Origin: a virus
Length of the DNA stretch: 31,177 nt
Virus record (IMG/VR): IMGVR_UViG_3300042549_004935
Span: 1 to 31,177 of that record
Direction: 5' to 3' (one strand)
Below are positions 4,954 through 17,861 of the stretch, in pieces. The notes under the pieces are model-generated. The model was not told where the DNA came from. It made no database searches and saw only the letters and a program-made list of their open reading frames with translations. Numbering within the stretch: position 1 is the stretch's first letter; the number at the start of each line of letters is the position of its first letter. The position numbers and the translations under genes were made by a program.

Positions 4954-5450
4954 CACTTGACAAATACATAGAAGGACATTACAAAAAGTTCAAAGAACTA
5001 GCGAAGAACATTTCGCGAGGCGAAGACTATTACGAAGACTTGCTTCACGATTCTTTGCTGTCTATGTTTGGTTCAAAGCATATCGAGAACCTAATCGACA
5101 CGGGCGACTTTGAGTTCTATTTGATTCGTGTCATGTACTTAGCCGTTAACAGCCCAACGTCGCCTTTTTACCGTCAAACGATTGCATGGAATAGAAATAG
5201 ACGCGACTTTAAAGAATACGCGCACGAAGTCGACAAGACGTGGTTAGGCGCACGCATGACAAACGAGCAACTGGATATTCTTATTAGCCGGTTAACCGAG
5301 TTTGAACGCTTAATCTTTCAGGAATACATATTCGAAGGATTCACCTACCGAGAATTTTCCAAACAAACAGGAATACCAACGGTATTTTTATACCGCACAA
5401 TAGATTCTATAAAAACTAAAATAAGAGCAAATGTTATTCGCAAAAAGTAA
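4950..5450 (+). CDS. Sigma-70-like (ECF-type) transcription factor
   Basis: The protein is 166 residues. Residues about 23-66 (YYEDLLHDSLL... FEFYLIRVMYLA) look like sigma region 2, and residues 107-160 (LDILISRLTEFERLIFQEYI, then FTYREFSKQTGIPTVFLYRT) form a region 4 helix-turn-helix that would read a -33/-35 element. A phage sigma could redirect host RNA polymerase to the late structural operon. The start is GTG 4950, overlapping the VRR-NUC stop (GTGA); the nearby ATG 4946 is out of frame and stops at once. A non-sigma helix-turn-helix regulator is the alternative. Confidence 0.7.
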   Translation: MTLDKYIEGHYKKFKELAKNISRGEDYYEDLLHDSLLSMFGSKHIENLIDTGDFEFYLIRVMYLAVNSPTSPFYRQTIAWNRNRRDFKEYAHEVDKTWLGARMTNEQLDILISRLTEFERLIFQEYIFEGFTYREFSKQTGIPTVFLYRTIDSIKTKIRANVIRKK

Positions 5451-5871
5451 CGAGTACAAAAGACGACTTGAAATATGTCGCACCTGTAAATTCTTCGAAC
5501 CTTCAACGCAAAGCTGTGGACCATTGATCGTGGGTGACGAAGTAGAAACCGAAGTATTGTTTCGCAAGAAGTCAATCAAGTTGTGCGGTTGTGTGATGCC
5601 GATAAAAGCAAAGTTAGCTTTCGCTTCTTGTCCAGCGTCAAAATGGAACGGTGTCTTGTCGTTAGAAGAACAAATTGAGTTCAAACGATTCTTGCTCGAT
5701 ATGAAGGCGCAAGGACGTCTTGAGCAGAAAGATATGCTTAAGTTCTATTCGTTCAAGGATAAAGCCACAGGAGCGTTCAACGAGCGTTCAACGTGTCCTC
5801 CGTGTGTAAAGAAAGACATCAATACGTTTCTCGATTCGATGAAGGACGTCGACGTTGATTTGAACAATTAG
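5431..5871 (+). CDS. Cys-rich putative zinc-binding protein (146 aa)
   Basis: The N-terminal half holds a CRTCKFFEP motif (C16, C19), then CGP, then a KLCGCVMPIK motif and a further Cys in ASCPASKW, a typical four-to-six Cys zinc site. A CPPC pair appears near residue 123. The second half is helical and charged. The gene starts inside the end of the sigma-like gene (20-base overlap). Proteins of this look are widespread in Bacteroidota phages without known role. The hairpin at 5942-6004 follows it and may end this transcript. Confidence 0.7.
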   Translation: MLFAKSNEYKRRLEICRTCKFFEPSTQSCGPLIVGDEVETEVLFRKKSIKLCGCVMPIKAKLAFASCPASKWNGVLSLEEQIEFKRFLLDMKAQGRLEQKDMLKFYSFKDKATGAFNERSTCPPCVKKDINTFLDSMKDVDVDLNN

Positions 5872-5911
5872 AAACTCAAAACTTGTTAGGCAACCTTTGA
5901 AAGTACAAACG

Positions 5912-5919
5912 TATATTTG
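5912..5919 (+). promoter_or_regulatory. Candidate -7 promoter element
   Basis: TATATTTG on the plus strand is a full match to the Bacteroidota -7 element, at the start of the long non-coding stretch. The nearest TTG upstream (5883-5885) is 26 bases away, longer than usual, so the call is weak. If used, transcription would begin near 5926 and run through the hairpins below. Confidence 0.3.
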
Positions 5920-5941
5920 TATAGTCAAGCATTTTAGTTAT

Positions 5942-6004
5942 TGCCCCCTTTTGTTTTTGCTTGACGGCTATAAACAATTGGGGGTATATTTTTTAAGTAA
6001 ATGA
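5942..6004 (+). terminator. G/C-clamped hairpin followed by a T run
   Basis: CCCCC (5944-5948) pairs with GGGGG (5990-5994), extended outward by G-T and T-A pairs and inward, past a TT/TT internal loop, by TTG/CAA. The right arm is followed by TATATTTTTT. This looks like an intrinsic terminator for the VRR-NUC/sigma/Cys-rich transcript, or an attenuator if transcription begins at the element at 5912. The 31-base apical loop is unusually large for a plain terminator. Confidence 0.5.
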
Positions 6005-6235
6005 AACAAACTGGATAAGAACACAAACCACCTTCGTAAGTCACAGCGAAGTAACCAATGACTACACTTGCAAAACATCAATGCTTGGAACGTGCAACTG
6101 CCCTTTTAAGGGCGAGAGTAATCTTTTTGGGGGAGCTTTTTCTTTTGTTCTTTCTTTATAGTGCTTACACGTTTTCTTTGTTCTTTTCTTTTCTTTGCAT
6201 ATTTAGTGACCTTCTAATAAATTTAATAACATACA

Positions 6236-6436
6236 ATGACATACATCGTAAGAGCGAAATACAAAGGTGACATTCTTTGGAATGCAGAATTTAAAACACA
6301 CGAACAAGCATTTGATTACTTTTATGCACACGCACAATATATGTGTAAAACAGCAGGTAAAGATTACGCTTTTACTTATGACAAAGATAATCCTTGTGTC
6401 AGATTGAAAGAAATTGAAATAATCGAAAATAAATGA
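6236..6436 (+). CDS. Small hypothetical protein (66 aa)
   Basis: A 66-residue alpha-beta protein with an N-terminal strand (YIVRAKYKGDILW), a helix (HEQAFDYFYAHAQYMCK) and two further strands. This is the typical layout of tiny phage proteins with an unknown role. It is the first gene after the non-coding stretch, with an A/T-rich leader, and its stop overlaps the next start as ATGA. Gene composition is AT-rich. Confidence 0.65.
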   Translation: MTYIVRAKYKGDILWNAEFKTHEQAFDYFYAHAQYMCKTAGKDYAFTYDKDNPCVRLKEIEIIENK

Positions 6437-15506: not shown

Positions 15507-17861
15507 ATGGCTAATACAATAGACTTCAATGTTAACAGTAATGCGGTAACGGTATTAAACCAAACCACAGTTGCTGCTGAAAATACGGCGAAAGGATTTA
15601 CAAGCGCGAAGGCTGAATTGCGCGCGTTGCAACAACAGTTGTTAACGATGGATCAAAGTAGCGCGGAGTTTAAGAAAGCTTCCGCGCGTGCTGCTGAATT
15701 GAAGGACAACATTTCCGACTTATCTGCGGAGATTAACGCAAATGCAGGTAACGCTTTCGAAGGTCTTTCGAACAACGTTGGTTTGTTTGGTTCACGTTTG
15801 ATGTCGCTCGACTTAAAAGGAGCAGGGCAAGCGTTAACAAACATGGGCGGCGCTGTAAAAAATATAAATTTCGCAACTGTAAAAGAGGAACTTGGCGGAA
15901 TGATTAAAGGCGTTTGGAATTTGGCCAAAGCTTTACTTGCTAATCCAATATTCTTGCTTGTAGGAGTTATTGCAGCGATCGCAATGAATTGGGATGCGCT
16001 GGTTAAGCTATGGAACACAAGCGATATTGAAAAATTAAAACAAGCACAAGCGGCGCTTGAAGGACAAAACAAAGCTATCAATGAACAGATAGCACTTGAA
16101 AAGGCACGCGGTAAATATGGGGAAGAAACATATTACCGACAAACGCAAATATTGCGTAATGAGATTGAAATATTCAAGCTCAAAGAAAAGCAAATGGAAC
16201 TTGAAGGGGAAAGTGAAGAGGCACAAAAAGCAAATGAGGAAAGACAAAAAAAAGTTCTTGACTTAAAAAAATTACAAGTTGAAGCGGATGGAAAAATATA
16301 TCAAGCAGTTGAAAATGCCAAAGGTGCGTTAGATCCAGTTATTGCTTTACAACAGAAAAAAACAGATGCGGCAAAAGAGGAACTTGGCGCATTGGAATTA
16401 ATCAAACAACGCCAACAAGATCAGAGCGCGGATATTCAAACCATGACTGGCGAAATGGGCAAATACCAAGCGTTGTTAGGGAAGGAAAAAACGTTGAGAG
16501 ATAAATTGCAAGGATTGGTTGAACGCGGTATTATGACACGTGGCCAAGCAATGCAAATGGAAGCGCAAGCCGGTAATTCACAGAACAAGTCAAAGCAAAT
16601 TCAGCAAGATATAAACAAACTGATCCAAGATAAAATTGCTGGAATTGATGGTGAAATAAAGGGAATTGGTTTAGCCAATGGCGGTTATGCGGAACAGATG
16701 CGAATATTGCAAGAGGCGGCAAATAAAAAGATGGATGCCGTTAAAAGCGAAGAACAAATTGCAGCTGAGAAAGAAACAGAAAGAAAAAAAGAAGAAGCGG
16801 CGGCGGAGTCAAAACGTAAAAGAGATCAACGCGCGGCGGATGCAGAATCAAAGCGAAAAGAGATTCAACAACAAACGCTTGAGATCCATAAACAAATTGA
16901 TGAATACAATAGAAAGAATTTATCTGATAAGGATAAAGAACTTTTTTTACTTGATGAAAAATATAAAAAAGAACGTAAGATTTTAGAGCAAAGTGCGGAA
17001 GGTAAAAAGTTATTACTTCAATACGACGAACAATATTTAATTGCAAAACAAGAGCTTGAAGCAAAGTATGAAAAGATTGCAAATGAAAAACGTATTGCCC
17101 AAGCGGATGCTGAATTTGCCTTACTTCAAGAGCTTGAAACAGATCAACAAACGAAAGAAGTTAATGCGCTTATTGCATCTTATGAAGCAAAATTCCTTGT
17201 TGCAAAGGACAATGCCGATCTGGAAAAACAACTAACAGAACAATTTGAAATTGACAAGAATGCGATTGTAAAAAAATATCGCGACAAGCAGAATGAAGAG
17301 AACGCCATTGCCGCGGCAAAAGAACTAGAAGACACTAAAAAATCGGAAGCGGAAATATCAGCAGCAAAACAAGCAGCGCAAGACTTCAGACTGAAGCAAT
17401 TAGGCGACTCATTCGCAGCACTTGGAGCGTTAAACGACGCGTTCACAAAGAAGGGACAACAACAATCGAAGAAACAATTTCAGATTCAAAAAGCGTTGAA
17501 TCTCGCGTCGGCTGTAGTCGATACTTACGGTGGTATCAACAAGGCGTTGAACGACAAGACAATGCCTTCAACAACGGCTCGTATTATACAAGCGTCAATC
17601 GTTGGCGCAATGGGACTGGCTAACGTAATAAAAATATCAAAGACGGAATACGGAAACGCAAGCGCACCTTCGGGAACATCACCAAGCGCGGGCGGTGGTG
17701 GCGACGGTGGCACAACAGCTCCTTCACCTGCGAACTTCGCCTTCTTGCAAAACCAACCCAACCAACAACCACCGCTTCAGGCGTACGTCGTAGGAACGCA
17801 GGTGTCGAGCAATTTAGAAGCGCAACAATTAATTCAAAATCAATCTCGCTTAGGCGGTTAA
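15507..17861 (+). CDS. Tape measure protein (784 aa)
   Basis: Long helical protein. Residues 20-80 are coiled coil (KAELRALQQQLLTMDQ), 143-161 a transmembrane-like segment (LLANPIFLLVGVIAAIAM), about 170-620 a Lys/Glu/Gln-rich coiled coil, and the end a Gly/Ala/Pro-rich tail. This is the tape-measure layout: it sets tail length and enters the cell envelope at injection. At roughly 1.5 A per residue the tail would be near 118 nm. The middle (about 16030-17380) is much more AT-rich, with GAT in place of GAC and several GATC sites, suggesting recombination. Confidence 0.85.
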   Translation: MANTIDFNVNSNAVTVLNQTTVAAENTAKGFTSAKAELRALQQQLLTMDQSSAEFKKASARAAELKDNISDLSAEINANAGNAFEGLSNNVGLFGSRLMSLDLKGAGQALTNMGGAVKNINFATVKEELGGMIKGVWNLAKALLANPIFLLVGVIAAIAMNWDALVKLWNTSDIEKLKQAQAALEGQNKAINEQIALEKARGKYGEETYYRQTQILRNEIEIFKLKEKQMELEGESEEAQKANEERQKKVLDLKKLQVEADGKIYQAVENAKGALDPVIALQQKKTDAAKEELGALELIKQRQQDQSADIQTMTGEMGKYQALLGKEKTLRDKLQGLVERGIMTRGQAMQMEAQAGNSQNKSKQIQQDINKLIQDKIAGIDGEIKGIGLANGGYAEQMRILQEAANKKMDAVKSEEQIAAEKETERKKEEAAAESKRKRDQRAADAESKRKEIQQQTLEIHKQIDEYNRKNLSDKDKELFLLDEKYKKERKILEQSAEGKKLLLQYDEQYLIAKQELEAKYEKIANEKRIAQADAEFALLQELETDQQTKEVNALIASYEAKFLVAKDNADLEKQLTEQFEIDKNAIVKKYRDKQNEENAIAAAKELEDTKKSEAEISAAKQAAQDFRLKQLGDSFAALGALNDAFTKKGQQQSKKQFQIQKALNLASAVVDTYGGINKALNDKTMPSTTARIIQASIVGAMGLANVIKISKTEYGNASAPSGTSPSAGGGGDGGTTAPSPANFAFLQNQPNQQPPLQAYVVGTQVSSNLEAQQLIQNQSRLGG

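What the first reader, a model, noticed from the sequence alone, without database searches (positions are those of the whole stretch)
5872..6235. Long hairpin-rich non-coding stretch with an extreme pyrimidine tract
In a genome that is otherwise tightly packed, 364 bases hold a promoter-like TATATTTG, a G5/C5 hairpin with T run, at least three further inverted repeats, and about 80 bases of nearly pure pyrimidine broken by GGGGGAG. It separates early regulators (sigma-like) from the late genes. A regulatory RNA, an attenuated leader, or a replication/packaging signal would all fit.
Basis: partly seen in the sequence, partly recalled or inferred. Interest (0 to 1): 0.6.

Follow-up and report, generated by a model that had tools for sequence, protein, structure and literature searches.

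The report
Swappable structured RNA locus in phages
The stretch is real and evolution has kept its RNA folds: a promoter fires straight into an RNA pseudoknot that looks like a transcription stop, and what follows is one of three unrelated, frequently exchanged RNA segments present in every close relative found, which suggests a fast-swapping RNA control element whose exact job is still unknown.

Summary
The promoter TATATTTG (5912-5919) predicts a start at 5924. That is the first base of an interleaved two-helix element (P1 5924-5931/5958-5965; P2 5943-5956/5972-5985) ending in U6, a terminator-like pseudoknot. In 40 distinct relatives, 99.9% of P1/P2 cells pair and 7 of 20 pairs show compensatory change; sliding the partner gives only 41-53% paired. 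Downstream lies one of three unrelated modules. A (window) is about 240 nt with a U-rich tract. B is a ~330-nt structured RNA after the same pseudoknot. C is a ~480-nt structured RNA on the opposite strand with its own promoter and pseudoknot. Every clade member with enough flank carries exactly one. Types are scattered at random on the sigma-gene tree (32 changes; shuffles 34.2), while neighbouring genes track it. Distant relatives (orfA 32-45%) lack the locus. No Rfam family matches credibly. Best reading: a clade-specific, rapidly exchanged RNA cassette led by a promoter-proximal pseudoknot attenuator. Replication or packaging is not supported. Whether module A's ORF at 6058 is translated is unresolved. 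Function is inferred, not shown.

The parts
5912..5919 (+). promoter -7 element TATATTTG (Bacteroidota type TANNTTTG); predicted +1 at 5924
   Evidence: sequence; conserved in the 50 A/B leader sequences (TAT[ACT]TTTG in all but two) and in type C; -7 rule with G at -5 from PMC6847099. The -33 element is weak in the window.
5924..5931 (+). P1 5' strand GTCAAGCA, at the predicted 5' end of the RNA
   Evidence: pairs with 5958-5965; 4 of 8 pairs with compensatory change, 99.7% of cells paired
5958..5965 (+). P1 3' strand TGCTTGAC, inside the loop of P2
5943..5956 (+). P2 5' strand GCCCCC-TT-TTGTTT
   Evidence: pairs with 5972-5985 across a U.U/U.U mismatch; 12 pairs, 100% of cells paired, 3 compensatory
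5972..5985 (+). P2 3' strand AAACAA-TT-GGGGGT
5989..5994 (+). U6 run after P2: intrinsic-terminator-like end of the leader; types A and B diverge right after it
   Evidence: sequence; blastn breakpoint at 5995 in the type B loci; terminator function inferred
5996..6235 (+). type A module (swappable segment)
   Evidence: replaced by an unrelated module in types B and C
6032..6051 (+). hairpin CTTCGT/GCGAAG, invariant
   Evidence: never varies, so neutral on structure
6058..6270 (+). ORF MTTLAKHQCLERATALLRAR + hydrophobic tail; translation uncertain
   Evidence: third-position bias (48 of 85 changes; 39 synonymous vs 25.9 expected, p=0.001), but frame not kept past codon ~22 in many relatives and start codon lost in L059
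6099..6114 (+). hairpin TGCCCT-TTTA-AGGGCG with compensatory changes
   Evidence: 4 of 6 pairs changed on both sides in relatives; L058 keeps the stem as GCTTC/GAAGC
6129..6197 (+). GGGGGAG plus U-rich pyrimidine tract, type A only
   Evidence: 84% pyrimidine over 6136-6197; absent from types B and C

Best explanation
The gap is one allele of a clade-specific, frequently exchanged RNA cassette. Strongly supported: a Bacteroidota-type promoter whose predicted start lies on the first base of a 5'-terminal two-helix element (P1 interleaved with P2) ending in a U-run, followed by one of three mutually exclusive RNA modules. Inferred: the leader works as a promoter-proximal attenuator. P1 folds first as RNA emerges (-10.3 kcal/mol). 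The stronger P2 then forms (-21.2) and stops many transcripts at the U-run, giving a ~70-nt RNA with its 5' end locked in a helix. Read-through yields the longer RNA with the module and, in types A and B, the downstream operon. The modules are the exchangeable functional part (regulatory RNA, or leader of the adjacent small gene); their rapid exchange suggests diversifying selection.
For: Covariation of P1 and P2 with clean slide controls (sequences). P1 and P2 share no nucleotide. A layout of TATATTTG, P1, P2 and U-run recurs in type C with unrelated sequence. Folding order. Predicted +1 at 5924 from the -7 rule (PMC6847099). Exactly one module in every clade locus with enough flank. B and C structured, with 6 and 9 compensatory pairs. 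Type distribution unlinked from the sigma tree (32 vs 34.2 shuffled) while hjr (6 clusters), orfA and orf117 stay linked (0/300). L022 (B) and L023 (C) share an identical sigma gene and are 98.8-99.8% identical for ~6.8 kb, ending inside orfA. Type C has its own conserved TATCTTTAG promoter-like site before orf117. No other TATNTTTG on the + strand between 5919 and 24475.
Against: No expression data: the start site, termination and read-through are all predicted. P2 to U-run spacing is 3-4 nt in the window, which is not ideal for an intrinsic terminator. In type C the unit points away from the late genes, so it does not control them in all relatives. Distant relatives do without it. Module A is only weakly structured, and its ORF may be translated. 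Random type distribution could come from neutral recombination at a hotspot; orf117 presence is also random on the tree.
Confidence: 0.5

Rival explanations
1. Trans-acting RNA cassette: the whole unit makes a stable non-coding RNA (pseudoknot as 5' cap, module as body) that acts on host or rival-phage targets, such as RNA immunity or counter-defence; the alleles are exchanged under frequency-dependent selection.
For: Three unrelated but always-present alleles with near-random distribution; B and C large and highly conserved; type C is a stand-alone, opposite-strand unit.
Against: No target, no defence or anti-defence match (PADLOC none); modules run directly into ORFs without an obvious terminator; no expression data.
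Confidence: 0.25
2. Module A is mainly a short gene: a small hydrophobic protein (MTTLAIHQCLDRATALLRAR + F/L-rich tail from 6058) behind an attenuated 5' UTR; the pyrimidine tract is its membrane-segment code.
For: Third-position bias in the first 20 codons; all 43 copies open for at least 33 codons.
Against: Pyrimidine tracts cannot hold stop codons, so openness is trivial; the frame past codon ~22 is not kept in subtype A1; ATG lost in L059; L058 keeps the hairpin but changes LLR to SYE.
Confidence: 0.3
3. Lambda-like late-gene switch: late promoter plus terminator, opened late by a phage antiterminator (orfA or another early protein).
For: Position after the early regulators; promoter immediately followed by a terminator-like element; only candidate + strand TATNTTTG promoter before the late genes in the window.
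Against: Type C phages drive orf117 from a plain promoter-like site with the RNA unit inverted; orfA relatives exist without the locus; no antiterminator domain in orfA.
Confidence: 0.2
4. Replication origin or packaging (pac/cos) site marked by the pyrimidine tract.
For: Most pyrimidine-rich 60-nt stretch of the + strand; intergenic.
Against: Tract absent from types B and C; conservation pattern is RNA-helix pairing on one strand; terminase genes are ~20 kb away.
Confidence: 0.03

Closest known systems
Lambdoid late-gene leader (pR'-tR' with Q antitermination; PMC6606751)
   Same: promoter followed at once by a terminator-like element, between early regulators and late genes (types A and B)
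   Different: pseudoknot instead of a plain terminator; inverted in type C; no Q homologue; pausing element and Q-binding site not identified
HK022 putRNA (PMC9378689)
   Same: ~70-nt structured RNA starting at the transcript's 5' end, just downstream of a phage promoter
   Different: put has two stem-loops and acts against termination through RNA polymerase; here two interleaved helices end in a U-run; no sequence relation tested or seen
Rfam RF02932 Betaproteobacteria-1 RNA
   Same: type B module (not the window) aligns at 31.2 bits, sharing GUCGGG, ACGGCAG and CUGUGGGA stretches
   Different: below the 49.4-bit cut-off; an equally strong hit of the window to animal mir-96 (30.9 bits) shows such scores arise spuriously; other host phylum
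Large structured RNAs of bacteria and phages (GOLLD, ROOL; PMC12286853, abstract only)
   Same: large conserved RNA without a settled function; occurrence in phages is from general knowledge
   Different: no Rfam match; smaller; three unrelated exchangeable versions at one site; 5' pseudoknot at the promoter

Membership tests
Intrinsic terminator / promoter-proximal attenuator | conserved hairpin followed by a U-run | tested here: met
   P2 100% paired in 40 sequences plus U6-7. The standard scan misses it because it allows loops of at most 8.
Intrinsic terminator / promoter-proximal attenuator | transcription actually stops there | not testable with these tools
   needs Term-seq or in vitro transcription
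Attenuator with mutually exclusive folds | terminator and antiterminator share nucleotides | tested here: inconclusive
   A/B: P1 and P2 are disjoint (pseudoknot-compatible), apart from a 2-bp local alternative. C: the P1 3' strand also pairs in an extended P2 hairpin with matching changes.
Lambdoid Q-type late switch | leader lies upstream of the late operon | tested here: not met
   true for types A and B, but in type C the unit is inverted
Lambdoid Q-type late switch | dedicated antiterminator protein encoded upstream | tested here: inconclusive
   orfA has no recognised domain
HK022 putRNA | two tandem stem-loops at the 5' end of the transcript | tested here: not met
   two interleaved helices
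HK022 putRNA | antitermination through RNA polymerase | not testable with these tools
   needs biochemistry
Rfam families (all 4227) | score at or above the gathering cut-off | tested here: not met
   window, type B, type C
Small hydrophobic protein gene | codon-position-dependent substitutions | tested here: met
   first 20 codons only, p=0.001
Small hydrophobic protein gene | reading frame kept across relatives | tested here: not met
   kept in subtype A2, not in A1

The most novel reading that the evidence does not exclude
A phage RNA-allele system: one genomic slot always filled by exactly one of three unrelated structured RNAs, each launched by a promoter firing straight into a 5' pseudoknot. 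The RNAs are exchanged faster than the flanking genes because selection favours rare types (RNA-based immunity, incompatibility or counter-defence).
Probability: 0.2. Interest if true: 0.85.

Novelty: new variant of a known kind. Interest (0 to 1): 0.62.

Why it matters
If right, a Bacteroidota phage clade carries an RNA element whose identity changes almost independently of its neighbours, a pattern usually seen for immunity or defence-related protein genes rather than RNAs. The promoter-to-pseudoknot layout, reached by two unrelated sequences, gives a small, directly testable transcription-control module in a phylum whose phage regulation is poorly known. Types B and C add two large structured RNAs absent from Rfam.

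Tried and rejected
Rfam at gathering and relaxed thresholds: only sub-threshold hits. The animal mir-96 hit is clearly spurious, so RF02932 for type B was kept only as a weak lead; its motif was not found outside this clade in viral contigs or in genome contigs. blastn of window, B and C regions against 50,697 phage records: no match. Sigma-like protein in named phages: none. Packaging or replication signal: rejected, tract not shared. Type B reading frame: rejected, broken by indels and often without ATG. The protein after B and C (ORF77): confident model but no informative fold match. Terminase search in bacterial genomes: nothing. Relatives in GTDB genomes could not be drawn for a virus record. 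Covariance models were not built, since only sequence already held or unreachable genomes could have been searched with them.

Full report
Setting. The window is a 31,177-base virus record of a Bacteroidota siphophage: its terminase is 49% identical to that of Flavobacterium phage 11b, with portal, tape-measure and tail genes. The gap lies after a Holliday-junction-resolvase-like gene, a sigma-like gene (phrog_1740) and orfA, and before orf66/orf117 and the + strand structural genes.

What is in the gap. The signal is local. TATATTTG (5912-5919) fits the Bacteroidota -7 element TANNTTTG, whose G sits at -5 (PMC6847099), so +1 is predicted at 5924. That base opens P1, GTCAAGCA (5924-5931), which pairs with TGCTTGAC (5958-5965). 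P2, GCCCCC-TT-TTGTTT (5943-5956), pairs with AAACAA-TT-GGGGGT (5972-5985), and U6 follows. The helices share no base and are interleaved. Read as nested hairpins, P1 forms first (-10.3 kcal/mol) and is then displaced by P2 (-21.2), or both coexist as a pseudoknot (the energy model has no pseudoknots).

Covariation. Eighty relatives were fetched through the sigma-like protein. On 40 distinct leaders, 99.9% of P1/P2 cells are standard pairs and 7 of 20 pairs change on both sides (e.g. GUCAAGCA/UGCUUGAC, GUCAAACCU/AGGUUUGAC, GCCAAGCA/UGCUUGGC). Shifting partners by 1-3 columns leaves 41-53% paired and at most one such pair. Sequences are related, so counts are not independent events, but the slide control keeps relatedness.

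Three exchangeable modules. Downstream of the leader the gap is not one homologous sequence. Type A (window) has a CTTCG hairpin, a covarying GCYCUUUUAAGRGC hairpin and the U-rich tract. Type B keeps promoter and pseudoknot to base 5995 and then has an unrelated ~330-nt RNA with 83 consensus pairs, 6 compensatory. Type C lies on the opposite strand, with its own TATATTTG, its own interleaved pair (UACUCGUUAA/UUAACGAGUA changing to UACUCGAUU/AAUCGAGUA; UUGCCCC/GGGGCAA), a U-run and a ~480-nt structured RNA with 9 compensatory pairs outside the leader. In type C the P1 3' strand can also pair within a longer P2 hairpin, with matching changes, which hints at alternating folds. Type C carries a separate conserved TATCTTTAG promoter-like site before orf117.

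Distribution. All clade loci with enough downstream sequence carry exactly one module; two loci from one contig also show an inverted duplication. Exact-pattern scans of IMG/VR found A, B and C only in this clade (contexts; a few short contigs lack some of the marker genes). Relatives with orfA at 32-45% identity have ORFs directly after orfA, with no such gap. On a tree of 81 sigma genes the type changes 32 times, against 34.2 in shuffles, while hjr (6 clusters), orfA N-terminus and orf117 clusters follow the tree (0 of 300 shuffles as low). L022 (B) and L023 (C) are 98.8-99.8% identical over about 6.8 kb up to the end of orfA and then carry unrelated modules. Exchange is therefore frequent; whether it is selected or merely a recombination hotspot is not settled, since orf117 presence is also random on the tree.

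Coding question. The ORF at 6058 has 48 of 85 inferred changes at third positions and more synonymous changes than expected (39 vs 25.9, p=0.001). But the frame is lost after codon ~22 in subtype A1, one copy lacks the ATG, L058 keeps the hairpin while changing the amino acids, and an open frame through a pyrimidine tract is trivial. Both a short peptide and an RNA role remain possible.

Mechanism. Strongly supported: paired helices, conserved promoter motif, module exchange. Inferred: start site, termination, attenuation, function of modules. The attenuator reading is preferred because a promoter followed within ~70 nt by a conserved hairpin plus U-run has arisen in two unrelated sequences. 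A lambda-like late switch explains A and B but not C. A trans-acting RNA explains type C and the allele pattern but has no target. Replication or packaging is not supported.

Known families. No Rfam family reaches its cut-off. RF02932 for type B (31.2 bits) is treated as a weak lead because a spurious mir-96 hit scores alike. HK022 put (PMC9378689) and Q leaders (PMC6606751) are functional analogies only.

Noticed in passing
L001:3881-4105 (-) and type B loci such as L022:7380-7607: A 75-84 aa protein (ORF77) sits directly 3' of the RNA in 17/17 type C and 11/23 type B loci but 0/41 type A. AlphaFold gives helix + small beta sheet (pLDDT 86) without informative matches.
   Followed up: partly
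L044:3862-3886 compared with window 6180-6206: The 3' end of type A's tract (TTTTCTTTGCATATTTAG) matches the 3' end of ORF77 in L044 (type B), so module A may have replaced or eroded ORF77.
   Followed up: no
L061 and L068, pyrimidine tract: Several neighbouring C positions are G in the U-rich tract (clustered C-to-G differences), hard to explain by ordinary drift (alignment).
   Followed up: no
L018:7067-7160: Type B module resembles Rfam RF02932 Betaproteobacteria-1 below cut-off, with matching loop motifs.
   Followed up: partly
L032 / L097: Contig with an inverted second copy of orfA-leader-module; may be an assembly chimera.
   Followed up: no
window 5431-5871: orfA is a cysteine-rich (possibly zinc-binding) protein of unknown function found well beyond this clade; it could be a regulator.
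   Followed up: partly
window 16182-16241 and 16766-16825: Purine tracts (83-85% purine) inside the tape-measure gene, as extreme as the pyrimidine tract of the finding.
   Followed up: no
L062 (contig 61,462 bp): About twice the genome length of its relatives; looks like a doubled circular genome (not tested).
   Followed up: no
pseudoknot, base after P1 3' strand (CGRC), window 5965-5968: The purine in CGRC matches the P1 purine/pyrimidine pair (G with G-C, A with A-U), hinting at a base triple or small alternative hairpin.
   Followed up: partly
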